NCBI GenBank assembly: GCA_018873225.1
Contig: JAEILZ010000004.1
Location: forward strand, 3,100,001 to 3,164,000
Source: [Phialemoniopsis] sp. UDSM-2020
Taxonomy: Eukaryota > Ascomycota > Sordariomycetes > Thyridiales > Thyridiaceae
Length of the DNA: 64,000 bases
Direction: 5' to 3'
The notes under the pieces: generated by a model
What the model saw: the letters and a program-made list of their open reading frames with translations, nothing else
The model's database searches: none
What the model was told of the DNA's origin: nothing
Translations under genes and position numbers: made by a program
Part shown: piece by piece, positions 19,971 through 36,763 of the stretch
How positions within the stretch are numbered: position 1 is the stretch's first letter
Layout of the letters: each line of letters begins with the position of its first letter

Positions 19971-20706
19971 CTACCAACCAACCTTCCGAACAAGAGTCCA
20001 CTCCGAACACTCCTCCAAGACGGCGGGACAATACTGGCCAATGATGAGGAATATCTTCTTCACACAGTGTTGGGCCATCGTCCCCGATGTGTAGAAATCG
20101 TTGCGAGGACCGAGAGGCCGAAGCTTGGTAATGTCCCGAGTCAGAAGCAGGCGGCACCAAAGGTCGTCGACCCGCCGAGTTACCTCAGCCTCATCCTTCC
20201 AGTCGATTTGGGGAGGGATTGCAGGTTGAGCCCTCTTGCTCAGATAAAGTGACGGCCCAAACTGAATTCGGACCTTCACAATCCGTGCCAGACCGCCATG
20301 CTTGTTGAACTTCTCCGGCTCAAACAAGAGCCAGTTCCAGTCCTTGAAGTTGTCCCCCTTGAGGTGAAGATAGAACGAATTCTCGCGGAAGTAGACTCTC
20401 AGAGCCTCCTCCCGGGTCTTTTTGTTGAGCTGAGCCATCGCAGGTGGTATGAAAATAGCCAATGGGCGTCCATGGCTGTTCTTGATAGGTCCCGGCTCGA
20501 CCAGCGCGTGTCGGTAGACGATACGTCGGACTTGTTTTGGGAGCTTAAGGAAGGGGAATGGCTTGTCGACTGAAACCTATTTTGGTGCATGTCAGCTATC
20601 GGCCTGACGATGAATAAGATGGTTTGTCTCGCACCTGGTCTTCCTCACCGTCGCGGTGGTTGTCACTGACTCCGGCGTCTGGCATTTCCTTGTCAAGGCT
20701 GGCCAT
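19971..20706 (-). CDS. LPxELR/2EXR-like fungal protein, paralogue 1
   Basis: Two exons: 20706-20635 (24 codons) and 20576-19971, with a 58-nt intron (GTGCGA donor, ATAG acceptor); 225 residues. After a charged N-terminus comes FPFLKLPKQVRRIVYRHAL, the F-x-LP-x2-(L/V)R-x2-(I/V)Y motif common in large F-box-like or 2EXR families of fungi. IPPAMAQLNKKTREEALRVY follows, and a C-terminal IGQYCPAVLEECSEW. The same blocks occur in the next gene, so the two are local paralogues. No function is known; family members are often expanded and poorly conserved. The start was chosen because the upstream exon gives an ATG in a coherent spliced frame. Confidence 0.72.
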
Positions 20707-22043: not shown

Positions 22044-22927
22044 ATGTCTGAAGGTTCTGACGAGAATTCTGGAGTTGATTCGAAGCTCGAGCCTGAGGCT
22101 GTGCCCGGTCTGTTGCGCCTACCTGCAGAGCTACGAAACCGACTTTATCGAGACCTCATTATACGACACCCTCAGCGGCCTGTCATTTCGAGTGGAAACA
22201 TATTTCGTCTAATTGTCCCTCCAAGAATTGCTCAGTTGAATAGGCAGATACGCAAGGAGGTGCTGTCCATCTTCTTCGCCGAGCACATATTCTGCTTGAA
22301 CTTCTCTCCTTCCGACTCCTCAGAATACGTATCGACGACGACCCTTTTTCTGCGACGCTTGCGCGATTCCTGAACTTGCTGGGCAACAGCAGAAACGAAC
22401 TTTTCAGCATGATTCAGAACATCTGCGTGGACATCCAGGACGAATGGGTATACTCCCGGAGGTTTGGAGATAGGGAGGCACGACGTCGTTCCGTGAACCA
22501 GAATCAGAATGTTGTGCTTCCCGTCCGTTATGAGGAGAATCATGGTTACGAAACGCTTCCTCGTGTTACCGTCCATCTACGTCTTCGATTATCCAATGGC
22601 TTGGCCGCGCCGTCCGGCCATCCACTGTGTACGAAAAAGCTGGTACCCTGTCAGAAAGATTGGACCGATCACCGAGCCGTTCACTCCTTTCTTGTGAATA
22701 GCTTTGAGGCCTTCATACAGAGCATCGGTTGGGCGGGCGAAGAAGAACTTGCATATGCCGAGAGAGCACTCGCTCTTGCCGCTACAGATCTTATCAATGA
22801 GGCCGCTGAACTGACGTGGCTGCTTGGACATTATTGTCCAACTGCTCTCGGGAATACGTGGGGTGATTGGCATGCATCTTATGATGACAAAGGACGATTC
22901 TCCGAGGGTATCGACTTCTCTGGATAA
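22044..22927 (+). CDS. LPxELR/2EXR-like fungal protein, paralogue 2
   Basis: Proposed two exons, 22044-22328 and 22418-22927, with an 89-nt intron (donor GTATCG, acceptor ATTCAG), giving 264 residues. Without splicing, the first frame stops at about 22373 and the conserved C-terminal half continues in another frame. The N-terminal part has LLRLPAELRNRLYRDLI and VPPRIAQLNRQIRKEVLSIF. The C-terminal part has LLGHYCPTALGNTWGDW. Both halves match blocks of the neighbouring paralogue in order, so they belong to one gene. The intron is inferred from frame and weak splice signals; a frameshift is the alternative and would make this a pseudogene. Function is unknown. Confidence 0.6.
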
Positions 22928-30500: not shown

Positions 30501-31153
30501 ATGGTGTTCCCTTTGGTAGGTATTTTATGCTCCCCCACATGAGTTATCTTTCCACACGTCTGACACATTGAAAGACCAAGTGGGAGCATCAGCTTCTCGA
30601 AGACCTAGGCAGTTATCTCGAGTATGGTACTCCACGTGTCAATGACTTGGGCGCCGCCTTCGATCAGGCCGTAGTCCTCTTCAACGAGTGGAGAAATCAA
30701 ATCGACGACTAGCGGGAGCAACCACGGAGGACTTACAATATCGCCTTCCTCGATCGCAACCTTGACTTGTTCGACACAATGCGCCAGAAGATAATTAATA
30801 TCCAGAGCGAACTCCTACGTTACCGCCCGGTCGAGCCAAATGCGGCAAGGGCAGCGATACTTGCCAGAGCTGAAATGGCAGCCCTGCGAACCGCCATGGA
30901 GGGGTGGGTGACGGCGGCGCTGGAGGCAATCCGGCGGGAGCAGTCACAAAGCTTGACCCGGCAAATACAAATTTGCATCACAGAGGCAAGGATGGACAAT
31001 TTCCTCGTAATAGATGAGGATTTGCAGACTTTCATCCACGACCTTAACGCGCGCCCCGAAATAAATCCGCTCCGGAGTAGTTCAGACAAGTCGAGTGATG
31101 CCGAGGACGAGGATTTCGTGAACGAAGAGCAAGACACGGATAGCGCCGAGTAG
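30501..31153 (+). CDS. Small helical orphan protein, array member 1 (in-frame TAG)
   Basis: The first exon is 30501-30515 (ATG GTG TTC CCT TTG), then a GTAGGT donor. With the near acceptor (AAAG at 30574) the second exon stays open for 45 codons, from KWEHQLLEDLGSYLEYG to FNEWRNQIDD, then meets TAG at 30710-30712. The same frame continues open to 31153. If instead the AG of that TAG is the acceptor (intron 30516-30712), the product is 151 residues: MVFPL joined to REQPRRTYNIAF. The C-terminal body is helical, SELLRYRPVEPNAARAAILARAEMAAL, and ends in an acidic tail. It resembles the array member at 35.6 kb (LLDTRPLDAEAKMLLSKFD). Function is unknown; it is either a spliced gene or a pseudogene with one nonsense codon. 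Confidence 0.5.
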
Positions 31154-32098
31154 CAGTATCTGCTGGACGAGGAACAAGAGCCGGCATGATAGGTGCATTA
31201 GAGTACAGACAATTTTGGCTGTAGCGAATGAGCGTAGATTTTCTCCGAGGAACATGGCGTGCTTACTTATTTTCAGTAGTATTTTATCTGAAGCGTTTGC
31301 TAGCGACATCAGTCCGCTCTTTTTATGTCCCGTCGGTTACTTTGCAAGACTCCTACTGTTCTAGATCCCCACATGAGCAACGATATCCCTCCTCGTCAAC
31401 GTGGACGATGATATGGCTCTATCGAACTCTCAACCGTTGATCATGTTCGTTGGGACTAGTGACTGAGTTTAGGATAGGGCATGAGGCTGTAAAGGGTACA
31501 AGACGTGACCGATTGCTTTGCTCATGGAGAGAGAAAGGATGGTCGAGGCAGAGATTTTGGTACTTCTAGGACTGCATCCAAAAAGGAAAATAGAGGTCCA
31601 CGAAGGATCGCCACCAGCCAGTGACACCGCATTCTTGTGTTAGTGTAGCGAAGATGTCTGCCTGACCTTTTCGGCTATGAAAAACCGGTTGTCAGGTCTC
31701 ACAGCTAGCCATGCCAGTGCGCAGAGGGGTGAAGTGAGGTATCATGTGCACATCACGTAGATCGGTGGTGAATCTACAAGTGCAATGAGTACAAGCTCTA
31801 AATCAGTGAAAGGTTCCGGAGTCAGTGAATCGATGAGGTTTCATGAGTCTTGACGAAGGCTCATAGCACGAAAGGAAGTGGTGGTTGCGTGGACGGCTAC
31901 TCAACAACATGCCTCCTAATCACGATGTCCATGATTCACAGGTGTTTAGAGCATCTATAAATGTTAGAAGAGTCTGCTAGAGACTGCAATACCCAGAATT
32001 CCACAACACAACACAACTCAACAGACACGAAGGCCCAAAGTCACTCAACGATCATCTTCTTGACGACAAGAGTCCATCAATCTTCCACAACTATCATC
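31154..32098. other. Intergenic inside small-gene array
   Basis: No gene is seen. The right end carries TATAAA at 31956-31961 and the A/C-rich leader of array member 2. Confidence 0.5.
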
Positions 32099-32600
32099 AT
32101 GGGTCCAGTGAGTTCTCCACTGTATCTGCATCCCTCTAGCAGAAGTCACTGACTTATGACAGGCTTTCCCCGCCAAGATGGAGCAGCAACTCGCCGAGTA
32201 CATCTCGGGCTTTGGCAATATGCCAACCTCTTCCAACCTGAAGGACCTCGTCGAAGACTGCTACATCGGAACCGGCTTCCTGGACACCTGGAAGGAGGCC
32301 ATCACCCGCTGGGACAACAACGCGGAGCCGGTCGGCGTGTCGTTCATCGAGCAAAACGTCGAGGGCTTCCTCGGCATCTCCAACCAGAAGGAGGCCATGG
32401 AGCAGGAGTGGGTCCAGCACGAAGACGTCACGGCCGAGCAGCAGTGCTACCTCGACAAGTTCAAGGAGCACTACGACGAGCTCAAGAATGTGCTCAAGAC
32501 CTGGCTGGAGAAGATCATGCCGGAGACTCTGGCGAGGCTGAGGAGCGACGATCCCCGTATCCAGGACGTGACGGAGAAGTTTGAACGTGTGTTCAAGTGA
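32099..32600 (+). CDS. Small helical orphan protein, array member 2
   Basis: Two exons: 32099-32107 (only ATG GGT CCA) and 32163-32600, with a 55-nt intron (GTGAGT donor, TGACAG acceptor), phase 0; 148 residues. TATAAA lies about 140 bp upstream. There is no signal peptide or TM segment. The protein is acidic and helical with Trp: LVEDCYIGTGFLDTWKEAI, then EDVTAEQQCYLDKFKEHYDELKN and LKTWLEKIMPETLARL. The last part resembles array member 3 (LSMAEKDRQATFTL...LKPYVDKVVPIAQKQL), so I place both in one diverged family. I recognise no known domain. Codon use is strongly C/G-ending in the second exon, which argues for a real, expressed gene. Confidence 0.75.
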
Positions 32601-33093
32601 ATTCTGCGGTTACAAAGGAGAATATGCATGGGATAGTGCCTGGAGCGTAGCTTTTGTCTTAGAACTTTTTGGGAGTCCTGATCATTGGGTTATTCCATGA
32701 TCAGAGTTAACCACCGCTTGATAACTCAATCAACTTGATTTCTCACGATCATCCATGCATTTCGTTTCTCGATGCATCAACTTATTCATGAATGATATTC
32801 AGCAATTTGATCGAATATACCGGACGACATTGATCCAGGATGCCCGCCTTGTCAAGTGAGCAACGGCAGGCGAGACTACCGAGTAGAGATGCTTGCAGTG
32901 ATTAGATACCTAGTCAGTACGCGATTCGCAACTGCCCTCGAATTCACATCCAGGAGGACTGTCACGATTCAGAGATTTTTTTGTGTATTTAATGGAAGCG
33001 ATCACCGCAGAAACAAACATTTGCAAAGTTGTCAGACACCGACATTTCCACACAAAATTCATCAATTCACTTCATATCGCAAACAGCATCACA
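32601..33093. other. Intergenic, 493 bp, with short inverted repeat
   Basis: Just after array member 2 lies a perfect 8-bp inverted repeat CTGATCAT/ATGATCAG with an 11-nt loop at about 32677-32703; it may shape the 3' end of the transcript. A TATTTAA lies near 32988, about 105 bp before member 3. Confidence 0.4.
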
Positions 33094-33618
33094 ATGGCTG
33101 CCGCCGCAGTAAGTCACAATTGGATCGTTTCTGGCCCCCATCGAGAATGCTCGCGCTAATCCACCGTGACATAGGAGAGCTTGCTGATCGACATCCAGGA
33201 CAAGGTGAAGGAACCTTGTGCCTCAGGAAAGCAAGGCATATTTCTCCGGATGCACGAACTCCAGGGCCTCTGCGATCAATGGAGGGGCGTCCTGTCTGAA
33301 TGGAAAGGGGATGAGCGACTGCACACCCCAGCAATTACCCGCAAGTGTCTCGAGACCTGGGGTCTAGTACGCGACCAGCGCAAGCAGCTGGAGAGCGACT
33401 ACAAGCTTCAACTGCGCCTGGGGACCTTGTCGATGGCAGAGAAGGACCGCCAGGCGACCTTCACACTTAGCTACTGCAAGCTGAGAGACCGGCTCAAGCC
33501 ATATGTTGACAAGGTGGTACCGATCGCCCAGAAACAGTTGCAGAGGTCGCAATCATGGGCCCAGGCTCTCGACCTAGCACAGCTATGGCAACAGAGCTTC
33601 CCGCCAGAGGAGTTATGA
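33094..33618 (+). CDS. Small helical orphan protein, array member 3
   Basis: Two exons: 33094-33108 (ATG GCT GCC GCC GCA) and 33175-33618, with a 66-nt intron (GTAAGT donor, CATAG acceptor), phase 0; 152 residues. The body reads SLLIDIQDKVKEPCASGKQG, LQGLCDQWRGVLSEWKGDE, ITRKCLETWGLVRDQRKQLE and CKLRDRLKPYVDKVVPIAQK. It is almost all predicted helix, with Trp in heptad-like spacing; there is no TM segment or signal. It has the same gene plan as members 1, 2 and 5 (tiny first exon, phase-0 intron, one long exon). Function is unknown. A bundle-forming or partner-binding protein is a guess only. Confidence 0.75.
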
Positions 33619-33910
33619 TTATGGTCTTCTGGTCTTGGCAGACGGGATACATTGAGGGTGTCATGAGTTGCAAATTTCTTGGAGGGTAAGGAACAACAAA
33701 CACAAGCCTGGTCCAGCACAAAGGACTTGATGGGCTACCTTGGGGCCGGTTAGGGCAACAAAACCCATCTACAAATCCAGCGTTTTGGAATGATTTTTGG
33801 TTTGACTACCATGTATGTGTCTCATGATTACGTTAATGATATGTAAGAAACCCTTCTCCCCACCCAACAAGAAAGCGAATATAACACCAAGGCTCCGGCA
33901 AGCCACCATA

Positions 33911-34516
33911 TTACCAGCGGTATGCCCGATACTCTCGCGGTCCCAGCACAGTCACAGCCAAACGCCACAGCGATATATCACTCAACTCAAGTTCCTTCTG
34001 GAAGCCATCTATGAGGAAAAGGAGGTCATCCTCCCGCCTGGTCAAGTCGATATCCCAGTCGTCGGCCCACCAGTACCTGGTTCCCATCCCCATGAGAGTG
34101 ATCGTGAGCAGCATCTCGTTCAGTTTCTTGTACACCCGGAAGTAGTAGTCGCGCGCCATCTCCTCCCGCTTCGAAAGCTGAGCAGACCAGCGTTTGAGTA
34201 TGTAGTCGTAATGGACGCTGCGTCTGCGGAGCAAGTCGACTGTTTCACAGATCGTGGCGACATCACTGGCCGGGCAGCTCTCCAGGTGCACCTCGACGAC
34301 GAGGTCTTTCCACTCGTGGAGAAGGAGAGCCCCATCGATCATCTGAGTGGCCGCTATGTCGACGTCTTCATAATCGTGATTCGTTGGACAATCCCCCCAT
34401 AGCCACCTCGTCAGCTTCTCAGGGACCTCCAAGTAGTGGCGATGTCTGTGCTGCGAGACTGCGAGCTGGCGAGTAGATGTCCTTGGAAAGAGTCGGGGAC
34501 GTGCTGGAGAGGGCAT
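33911..34516 (-). CDS. Small helical orphan protein, array member 4
   Basis: Single exon, 201 residues from the ATG at 34516 (MPSPARPRLFPRTSTR). The frame extends 18 codons above it, but a TATATA lies within that stretch (about 34555), so the downstream ATG is preferred. The N-terminus is basic. The body is helical: DIAATQMIDGALLLHEWKDL, ICETVDLLRRRSVHYDYILK, EEMARDYYFRVYKKLNEML, then a WWADDWDID stretch and a C-terminal helix ending LGPREYRAYRW. The pattern of W and helix blocks resembles the array member at 35.6 kb, but weakly. It is the only member on the minus strand and has no visible tiny first exon. Function is unknown. Confidence 0.65.
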   Translation of the reverse strand: MPSPARPRLFPRTSTRQLAVSQHRHRHYLEVPEKLTRWLWGDCPTNHDYEDVDIAATQMIDGALLLHEWKDLVVEVHLESCPASDVATICETVDLLRRRSVHYDYILKRWSAQLSKREEMARDYYFRVYKKLNEMLLTITLMGMGTRYWWADDWDIDLTRREDDLLFLIDGFQKELELSDISLWRLAVTVLGPREYRAYRW

Positions 34517-35468
34517 GTTGATTTCTGTTTTCTGCAATGAATTTGTCGACTTAGATATATAAGGTCGCATGAAAACACTTTGAAAGCCTTCGAGGCTGTT
34601 GTGGGTAAGATCCAGAACGCGAGGGGGCCATCCTGTCGATACTTATACAACGGCAGCCACCTCCGTGTCACGAACAGTTCGTACCGCGTTGCAACGAGCT
34701 TGGCGACACTCGGACACCACATCAACATTCGATTTACGGCAGATGGCGATAACCCTTTGGTAGGACAGGTGCACCTTCAGAACACTACCCGGGCCACGGA
34801 TGCATCACCACGTGTAGATAAGGCAGTGACACGGGCTCTTGTTCGCCAAGGGCAGGTGTCAAATTACCAAGAGCGGAGCCGTTTCTGAGAAGGAGTGGAT
34901 TCACTACGCCTACTCGTGAGCTTTCCTGGATGTAAGAGATCATCTGTGTGGCCACTGCCTGACACTTTGAGGAAGGGGGTTTGAGGTCTGAAGGCGAAAG
35001 GAGATTGACACCACGCGGCGGATGTTCCTGCCTAGCAACGATTCCGGCACAGCAAGGGGGCGATGACTTGAGCCTTTTCCCGTGTCATCTTCTTACACAA
35101 CAATTCATCCAAGTGCAGCTGGGCAAGGGCAACTGCCCGCAGACTGCTGCAGCCTGCAGGGGCATAAATTGCCTTGCGCGACGGTCAAAGCCGCTATGTC
35201 CTTTCAAACATGCTGACATCAACAAGCCGAGCATCTGACACCGAAAGATATCATTTGAGAAAGGCCAAAAACAAGCCTCTGTTCATCTATCCACTCCATT
35301 CAGTACAAGTCGTCACTGTTATATTTTCATTTGAGTCCTCAGACACAAGTCTCAGTATTTCGTCCCACTCAAGATCTGGCTAGATTCCCATTATTAGGCT
35401 TCCTCGCCCAAAGTCACCCCGAGGATCAAGACCGCCAATCTCAGCAAAACTCTCAGACGAGGCTCAGT
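34517..35468. other. Intergenic inside small-gene array
   Basis: This 950-bp divergent region lies between members 4 and 5. TATATT near 35318 could serve member 5. No coding sequence is supported. Confidence 0.45.
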
Positions 35469-36098
35469 ATGGTTTCTCCGCCGCCAGACCTCGGCTTGGA
35501 TGTAAGTAACCCTCCGACGAACGCCGTCACCTCAAACCGTAGCATGCTGGCTAATCAAGAACGGCGGTAGCCCATGGCCGACTCAGAGGCCTGGCGCGCC
35601 GTGGAGTCCTAGATGGCTTCTGGCCACCTGGCCCATGACTGCACTATAGCCGACGTCGTAGGGCGGGCCGAGAAGGCTATCGGAGACTACATCAACGAGA
35701 TCGAAAGGTGGACTTCTTCATCCGTCCAAGCGGGAGTCATGACAGAGCTCACTTGGCGCTTCGCGCGGATTGGCAGCTATTACGAACATGTCCGCACCCT
35801 GCTGGATACTAGGCCGTTGGATGCAGAAGCAAAAATGCTACTCTCGAAATTCGACGCCGATATGGCACTTCTGTGTGCCAAGGCGATCTCCTGGGCGGCT
35901 TCGGTGTTTGAAGAACTTTTTGCCAAACACGTCGGTACTGTCCCTACTGCTACCACCAAAGAGCTACTTAGAGCCGACTTAGAAGCAGGGCAGAGCTTCC
36001 GCAAGCAGATCCTTCTGTTAGCGAACGAAGTGATGGCAAATCTTGCGAAGGGAGAGGACTCAGGAGAGGACCCAGGAGAGGACTCAGAGGAGGAGTGA
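35469..36098 (+). CDS. Small helical orphan protein, array member 5
   Basis: The first exon is 35469-35501 (11 codons, MVSPPPDLGLD) with a GTAAGT donor. Two acceptors keep the frame. The one at 35570 leads in 13 codons to an in-frame TAG at 35610-35612. The AG of that same TAG, used as acceptor, gives exon 35613-36098 starting ATG GCT and a 172-residue product. I prefer the second model. The body is helical: DVVGRAEKAIGDYINEIERW, ELTWRFARIGSYYEHVRTLL, then DTRPLDAEAKMLLSKFDADM and CAKAISWAASVFEELFAKH. It ends in an acidic DSGEDPGEDSEEE tail, like member 1. There is no known domain. Near-identical layout to member 1 supports common descent. Confidence 0.65.
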
Positions 36099-36374: not shown

Positions 36375-36763
36375 ATGGTAAGAACACGTCCACTCCCCTA
36401 CTTTTGAATCAAGCTTTCCTGACCCATGGGCGAAAGGCTTACCATCATGACCATGGCAACCACCGATTTCCCGACCATGTTCACGATGAACAGGCGTTCC
36501 GGCCCGCTGCCTTGGGTGCTCTCGACTGTCCGCCGTGCCCGCCTAGCCCAGCCTGTTATCTCTACGTAGAACGATTCGGCTGCGCTATTCCCTGTCATCG
36601 GATTCCTCTATATGTGCTAGCTTTCATCCTGCTCACCACGGCCTTCTTTAAACTCGGCCACCGTTTCTTTAAACTCGGCCACCGATACGCCGAGTGGCTG
36701 CGATGCTGTGAGGACGCAAGGCTCGCCAAGGTCAATGAGATCGATGGGGACTGCAAGGAATGA
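36375..36763 (+). CDS. Small Cys/His-rich single-TM protein with possible ATG-only first exon
   Basis: The only suitable ATG (36375-36377) is followed at once by GTAAGA. Splicing from there to AAAG at 36436 (59-nt intron) joins ATG to GCT TAC CAT in frame and gives 109 residues. The protein begins MAYHHDHGNHRFPDH (His-rich). A Cys/Pro segment follows (CPPCPPSPACYL, then FGCAIPC), then one TM helix, IPLYVLAFILLTTAFF. A short basic/acidic tail completes it. FFKLGHR occurs twice in tandem because of a 21-bp direct repeat at about 36647-36688. It is not obviously related to the helical array proteins but sits in the same block. The gene is moderately supported; a longer unrecognised upstream exon is possible. 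Confidence 0.45.

What the first reader, a model, noticed from the sequence alone, without database searches (positions are those of the whole stretch)
30501..36098. Block of five small, helical, diverged paralogues between conserved genes
Between the ThrE-like and ISA1 genes lie five short genes (30.5, 32.1, 33.1, 33.9 reverse and 35.5 kb) with no recognised domain. Their products are 150-200 residues, helical and Trp-containing, without signal peptides. Local matches link them: LLRYRPVEPNAARAAILARA with LLDTRPLDAEAKMLLSKFDA (members 1 and 5), and DVTAEQQ...LKTWLEKIMPETLARL with LSMAEKD...LKPYVDKVVPIAQKQL (members 2 and 3). Four share a plan of 3-11-codon first exon, phase-0 intron and single long exon. 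This looks like a fast-evolving tandem family with no described role. Homology between the more distant members is inference from short matches.
Basis: partly seen in the sequence, partly recalled or inferred. Interest (0 to 1): 0.75.

Follow-up and report, generated by a model that had tools for sequence, protein, structure and literature searches.

The report
Orphan gene cluster with stop-interrupted members
Five small neighbouring fungal genes with no relatives that we could find include two that seem to carry a single stop signal inside the gene; this fungus appears able to edit such signals out of its messages during sexual reproduction, so the two may be genes read only at mating, or recently broken ones.

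Summary
Members 2, 3 and 4 are intact. Members 1 and 5 are stop-free only with introns of 197 and 111 bp that end exactly on an in-frame TAG. With introns like those of members 2 and 3 (65 and 69 bp), each has one TAG early in exon 2, then 146 or 161 open codons. Member 1's TAG aligns to a column that is Trp in members 2, 3 and 5. The genome looks like a Sordariomycete's that edits mRNA: it has an Ame1-like gene with the editing-linked Met-Val pair and a PUK1-like kinase with TAGTGG at a known editing position. I favour an orphan, fast-evolving helical-bundle family whose two outer members are decoded by sexual-stage A-to-I editing (0.42). Ordinary pseudogenes come close (0.35); no RNA data were available. 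Sequence homology is supported for members 1-2-3 only; member 4 shares one motif, member 5 a predicted helix order. No relatives were found in a database rich in Sordariomycetes, but apparently without a close relative of this species.

The parts
30501..30515 (+). member 1, exon 1 (MVFPL)
30516..30580 (+). member 1, favoured intron (65 bp; GTAGGT, CTGAC branch-like site 17 nt before the acceptor)
30581..30709 (+). member 1, exon 2 before the TAG (43 codons, coding-like, holds the W-[RK] motif)
30710..30712 (+). in-frame TAG of member 1; in the five-way alignment on a column that is Trp in members 2, 3 and 5 and Val in member 4
30713..31153 (+). member 1, exon 2 after the TAG (146 codons and stop; acidic C-terminal tail)
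32099..32107 (+). member 2, exon 1 (MGP)
32108..32162 (+). member 2, intron (55 bp)
32163..32600 (+). member 2, exon 2 (148-aa protein in all; exon-2 product predicted as a five-helix bundle, pLDDT 87.6)
33094..33108 (+). member 3, exon 1 (MAAAA)
33109..33174 (+). member 3, intron (66 bp)
33175..33618 (+). member 3, exon 2 (152-aa protein in all)
33911..34516 (-). member 4, single exon, 201 aa; membership weak (one shared motif)
35469..35501 (+). member 5, exon 1 (MVSPPPDLGLD)
35502..35570 (+). member 5, favoured intron (69 bp; CTAAT branch-like site 16 nt before the acceptor)
35571..35609 (+). member 5, exon 2 before the TAG (13 codons)
35610..35612 (+). in-frame TAG of member 5; A in a predicted hairpin loop with flanks of 20-30 nt, not with 75 nt or more
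35613..36098 (+). member 5, exon 2 after the TAG (161 codons and stop; acidic C-terminal tail; predicted four helices)

Best explanation
The block is a local expansion of an orphan, fast-evolving family of small, probably intracellular helical-bundle proteins in a Sordariomycete-like fungus. Shown by computation: members 1, 2 and 3 are related; member 2 is predicted as a five-helix bundle; with introns like those of the neighbouring genes, members 1 and 5 each carry one in-frame TAG early in the long exon, with coding-like sequence on both sides. Inferred: in vegetative cells members 1 and 5 give only 48- and 24-residue fragments; in fruiting bodies the Tad2-Tad3-Ame1 deaminase converts UAG to UGG (Trp), yielding full-length bundles with acidic tails, so the two outer genes are switched on by editing while the three inner ones need none. 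What the bundle binds is not known; I infer a role confined to sexual development.
For: Intron anatomy: the only CTRAY site in each intron lies 17 nt (member 1) and 16 nt (member 5) before the favoured acceptors, against 10, 15 and 14 nt in members 2, 3 and the 36.4-kb gene; for the TAG acceptors it lies 149 and 58 nt away. In-frame codon scores are positive and the best of three frames before (+0.168, +0.294) and after (+0.090, +0.097) the TAG in members 1 and 5. Member 1: in the five-way alignment the TAG column is Trp in 3 of 4 other members, at the end of the best ungapped 12-mer of members 1-2-3 and 1-3-4 (2 and 3 of 60 shuffles reach it); in the leave-one-out test member 1 with its part before the TAG gets E 0.041, while the part after the TAG alone is not among the 14 rows printed (last E 8.4). 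Organism: DUF726 genes at two places; the C5 copy has Met-Val 30 and 29 residues before its GYSLG serine, the C1 copy Leu-Asp, against Met-Val 31 and 30 before the serine in F. graminearum Ame1 (passages). A kinase at G000:C1:4067683-4067685(-) reads RCD[TAG]WSIG, i.e. TAGTGG, the arrangement reported as edited in N. crassa PUK1 (passages). Member 5's A lies in a hairpin loop with 30-nt flanks (P 1.00; reached by 2.75% of 400 control TAGs). Invented introns around edited stops are a described artefact.
Against: No RNA data, and no close relative in which the TAGs could be seen conserved. Member 5's hairpin loop fades with longer flanks (P 0.57 at 35 nt, 0.05 at 40, 0.48 at 50, 0.00 at 75 and 100); member 1's A is not in a loop at any of eight flanks (P 0.02-0.15); the PUK1-like TAG scores only 0.18. 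In the pairwise alignment of members 1 and 2 a gap puts the TAG one column past the Trp, and the part of member 1 before the TAG, taken alone, matches member 2 best at another place (p 0.005-0.009), member 3 at the motif only weakly (p 0.04-0.07) and member 4 not significantly. A nonsense mutation of a Trp codon gives the same picture. The DNA methylase search showed no stop inside its five matches, so a second known editing target was not confirmed.
Confidence: 0.42

Rival explanations
1. Members 1 and 5 are recent pseudogenes: single nonsense mutations (for member 1 a Trp codon turned to TAG) in a decaying orphan family, while members 2 and 3 stay functional.
For: One stop in each otherwise open frame; orphan, fast-evolving genes are often lost (general knowledge); member 5 is not recognised by a profile of the others; member 1's TAG lies outside a predicted hairpin loop.
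Against: No frameshift and no second stop in 194 and 185 codons; codon scores stay positive after the TAG; both stops are UAG, the editable type; no RIP-like dinucleotide bias in the cluster (0.63 and 1.27, against 0.64 and 1.25 for 264 kb; member 5 alone has a raised TpA/ApT of 0.92).
Confidence: 0.35
2. One reading: splicing ends at the TAGs, or translation starts again downstream (member 5 has an ATG directly after its TAG).
For: TAG is a legal acceptor and both models are phase 0 and open; the TAG-ATG junction of member 5 is visible in the sequence.
Against: The CTRAY sites lie 149 and 58 nt from these acceptors, against 10-17 nt elsewhere. The member 1 model would delete coding-like sequence that aligns to helix 1 and most of helix 2 of the predicted bundle.
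Confidence: 0.13
3. A separate question from the three above: the five genes are not one family, but two or three real paralogues (1, 2, 3) beside unrelated small helical genes.
For: Members 4 and 5 fail leave-one-out profile tests; six of ten pair tests are not significant and two are marginal; helical-bundle matches are generic; the 36.4-kb gene fits the same exon plan without kinship.
Against: W-[RK] motif shared by member 4 at width 12; similar order of predicted helices in members 2 and 5; members 1 and 5 both end in acidic tails.
Confidence: 0.3

Closest known systems
PSC-edited (premature stop correction) genes of Sordariomycetes: PUK1, AMD1, FgRID, FgAMA1, FgBUD14 (review PMC11156358)
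   Same: one in-frame UAG (two in F. graminearum PUK1) in an otherwise open coding exon; a gene model free of stops needs a made-up intron; genome with an Ame1-like gene and a PUK1-like TAGTGG kinase
   Different: no editing shown here; small orphan neighbours instead of conserved genes; loop context weak
Editing-controlled spore killer genes (rfk-1 of Neurospora; the meiotic drive gene of Lohmar et al. 2022), seen here only as cited titles
   Same: genes of Sordariomycetes whose effect on spores is tied to A-to-I editing, by those titles; small size is recalled
   Different: no drive, killing or resistance evidence here; no sequence comparison made
OLD-ZAO editing modules (OTT_1508-like deaminase beside a zinc-finger gene with a UAG; PMC12754623, part 1 of 3 read)
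   Same: UAG correction by a deaminase in a filamentous ascomycete
   Different: four OTT_1508 matches in this genome, none in the window; the nearest on the same contig is about 519 kb from member 5; no zinc-finger match in the five pieces scanned

Membership tests
PSC-edited fungal genes | UAG inside the true coding exon, open frame on both sides | tested here: met
   rests on the favoured intron models, no cDNA
PSC-edited fungal genes | organism has the editing machinery (Ame1 with Met-Val) | tested here: met
   compared with passages of PMC11087585; one-residue offset; no Ame1 sequence aligned; Tad2 and Tad3 not searched
PSC-edited fungal genes | organism carries a known conserved edited stop | tested here: met
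   PUK1-like kinase with TAGTGG; orthology judged by motif and position only
PSC-edited fungal genes | edited A in a hairpin loop (preferred, not obligatory) | tested here: inconclusive
   member 5 clear only with flanks of 20-30 nt, member 1 no
PSC-edited fungal genes | A-to-G in perithecial cDNA | not testable with these tools
   no RNA data held
one paralogue family (members 1-5) | significant sequence relation among all members | tested here: not met
   supported for 1-2-3, not for 4 and 5
one paralogue family (members 1-5) | same fold | tested here: inconclusive
   members 2 and 5 modelled with overlapping alignments; members 1, 3, 4 not modelled
OLD-ZAO module | OTT_1508-like deaminase next to the UAG gene | tested here: not met
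spore killer genes | killing of sibling spores | not testable with these tools
   needs crosses

The most novel reading that the evidence does not exclude
A single cluster in which sexual-stage RNA editing switches on the two outer, acidic-tailed members of a rapidly diverging bundle family while the inner members are always readable: a self-contained sexual-stage module, possibly a selfish, spore-killer-like one with the always-on partners acting as protection.
Probability: 0.06. Interest if true: 0.85.

Novelty: new member of a known kind. Interest (0 to 1): 0.45.

Why it matters
If the two UAGs are edited, this would be a natural side-by-side comparison of stop-gated and ungated neighbours in one block, making it directly testable why fungi keep stops in genes that only editing can read. 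If they are not, it is an ordinary orphan cluster with two dead copies. Either way, annotating such genes with stop-dodging introns would hide the point.

Tried and rejected
Relatives: member 2 (exon 2) alone (5 candidates, none at E <= 1) and a profile of all five (4,361 candidates, none at E <= 1). The ThrE control found 1,025 proteins at E <= 1e-10 among 7,991 scored candidates; the 120 rows listed have 37-48% identity, and the best-scoring named ones are Hypocreales (order recalled). So the collection is rich in Sordariomycetes but appears to hold no close relative of this species, and young relatives could be missed. Own-genome searches with the long exon or post-TAG part of each member found only itself; that search is not sensitive to relatives at 15-20% identity. 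Profile scans of the 200 kb of flanks fetched: no convincing further member (lowest non-member E 0.37, 0.13).

RIP as the cause of the TAGs: the cluster's indices equal the regional ones; member 5's raised TpA/ApT (0.92) is not matched by its second index (1.17). DNA repeats: between members only short matches of 16-20 nt, plus a 34-nt, 71% inverted match between members 1 and 4 over the W-[RK] motif. The hairpin argument was weakened by my own longer-flank control. One paper search on premature-stop editing with paralogue or lineage-specific terms listed one paper, on AMD1; a spore-killer search with SKC1 listed none. Neither shows that nothing is in print.
Full report
What is there. The window is bases 3,100,001-3,164,000 of contig C6 in a 44.18-Mb genome of 11 contigs. 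Between a ThrE-type gene and an ISA1-type gene lie five short loci without Pfam matches above cut-off. Members 2 (32099-32107 + 32163-32600), 3 (33094-33108 + 33175-33618) and 4 (reverse, 34516-33911) are open.

The gene models of members 1 and 5. The stop-free models need introns 30516-30712 and 35502-35612, whose last three bases are an in-frame TAG. Each of these introns holds one CTRAY site; its A lies 149 and 58 nt before those acceptors, but 17 and 16 nt before the phase-0 acceptors at 30580 and 35570. The same distance is 10, 15 and 14 nt in members 2, 3 and the next gene at 36.4 kb. With the short introns (65 and 69 bp; members 2 and 3 have 55 and 66) each gene has one stop inside exon 2, a TAG, followed by 146 or 161 open codons. 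Codon scores learned from 39 long frames of the 264-kb region are positive and the best of three frames on both sides of each TAG (only 13 codons before the TAG in member 5). The median of the long frames is 0.095 and of all 465 frames of 140-200 codons 0.012, so members 1 and 5 after the TAG (0.090, 0.097) look coding, but not strikingly so: they lie near the upper quartile (0.103) of all such frames.

Kinship. Of ten pairs, members 2-3 and 1-2 stand out against shuffles. Leave-one-out profiles recover members 1 and 3 first among non-members at E 0.041, member 2 at E 5, member 4 at E 25, and member 5 not at all at E <= 100. For member 1 this needs the part before the TAG: the part after it alone is not among the 14 rows printed. 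Ungapped 12-mers pick the same place in members 1, 2, 3 and 4: LFNEWRNQIDD-stop, FLDTWKEAITRW, LCDQWRGVLSEW, LLHEWKDLVVEV; 2, 3, 3 and 0 of 60 shuffles reach the scores of triples 1-2-3, 1-2-4, 1-3-4 and 2-3-4. Ten triples and two widths were tried; at width 20 the best triples with member 4 lie at other places of member 4, and triples with member 5 gave 3 to 55 of 60. In the alignment of all five the TAG of member 1 sits on a column that is Trp in members 2, 3 and 5 and Val in member 4; the TAG of member 5 sits on a hydrophobic column (Ile, Ile, Leu, Leu). Against this, the pairwise alignment of members 1 and 2 opens a gap that puts the TAG one column off the Trp, and the part of member 1 before the TAG, taken alone, matches member 2 best elsewhere. 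Members 1 and 5, the outer genes, share acidic tails (10 of the last 20 and 9 of the last 19 residues are D or E).

Fold. Member 2 (exon 2), modelled from an alignment of the five, is a confident five-helix bundle (pLDDT 87.6, pTM 0.82). Member 5 after its TAG, modelled from an alignment with members 1, 2 and 3, gives four helices in the order of helices 2-5 (pLDDT 76.5, pTM 0.67), so the part before the TAG would supply helix 1. The two predictions are not independent. No solved structure matches beyond the level usual for helical bundles.

The organism. The best-scoring named ThrE matches are Hypocreales, and further down other Sordariomycetes, Leotiomycetes and a few others appear (classes recalled). 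Fungal mRNA editing works through Tad2-Tad3-Ame1; Ame1 has a DUF726 domain, and a change from Lys-Asn to Met-Val at 500-501, with the catalytic-triad Ser at 531, marks the editing form in Sordariomycetes (passages of PMC11087585). This genome has DUF726 genes at two places; the C5 copy has Met-Val 30 and 29 residues before its Ser, the C1 copy does not. Of 137 kinase matches, 25 by my count have a stop inside; I fetched 7 of these 25, among them all five whose only stop is a single TAG. One, at C1:4067683-4067685 on the reverse strand, has TAG followed by TGG where related kinases have Trp-Trp (motif recalled). N. crassa PUK1 has UAGUGG in its kinase domain, and it is edited (passages of PMC4817773). 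The other six looked by eye like exon edges or introns. So the fungus probably edits UAGs of this kind in the sexual phase; PMC11156358 (parts 1 and 2 of 3 read) reports PUK1 and another 70 such genes in F. graminearum. The DNA methylase search, tried because FgRID is one of them, showed no stop inside its five matches.

Site context. Known sites favour U at -1 (given by UAG) and hairpin loops (62.4%). Member 5's A is in a six-base loop with flanks of 20, 25 or 30 nt (P 1.00; 11 of 400 random TAGs reach this at 30 nt; 484 of 1,500 lie in some minimum-energy hairpin loop), but P is 0.57 at 35, 0.05 at 40, 0.48 at 50 and 0.00 at 75 and 100 nt in the spliced message. Member 1's A is not in a loop at any of these flanks. 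The PUK1-like site scores 0.18, so this test discriminates poorly.

Weighing. The intron evidence makes a real in-frame TAG likely in both genes. Whether it is edited or simply a mutation cannot be decided without RNA. The Trp column in member 1, the open frames after both TAGs and the editing-competent genome favour editing; the weak loop context, the orphan nature of the genes and the ease of such mutations favour decay. I put editing at 0.42, decay at 0.35 and splicing or restart at 0.13. Whether the five form one family is a separate question, which I leave open for members 4 and 5. Rechecking the calls mended several figures and added the results against my reading given above; it did not move these odds.

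Function. No domain, no telling fold match and no relatives. The best inference is a sexual-stage protein-protein interaction module. Editing-controlled spore killing in this fungal class is known to me here from cited titles only, so a selfish role is a speculation that I give a few percent.

Noticed in passing
window 36375-36763 (+): Sixth small gene with a one-codon first exon, 59-bp intron and a 109-aa product that looks to have one membrane-spanning stretch; no Pfam match.
   Followed up: partly
G000:C1:4067683-4067685 (-), L035: PUK1-like kinase with TAGTGG in its kinase domain, a probable conserved editing site.
   Followed up: partly
G000:C5:3853316-3854433 (-) and C1:8507983-8509042 (-): Two DUF726 genes; only the C5 copy carries a Met-Val pair at about the place described for Sordariomycete Ame1.
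   Followed up: partly
window 19974-20576 (-) and 22044-22924 (+): Two neighbouring genes that look alike by eye (the first with a sub-threshold 2EXR match, E 0.0059); the second changes frame near 22.35 kb, perhaps by an intron.
   Followed up: no
G000:C4:3511730, C6:3655494, C9:2656555, C6:4332752: Four OTT_1508-like deaminase matches, the type that corrects stops in the OLD-ZAO antiviral modules of Neurospora; their neighbours were not examined.
   Followed up: no
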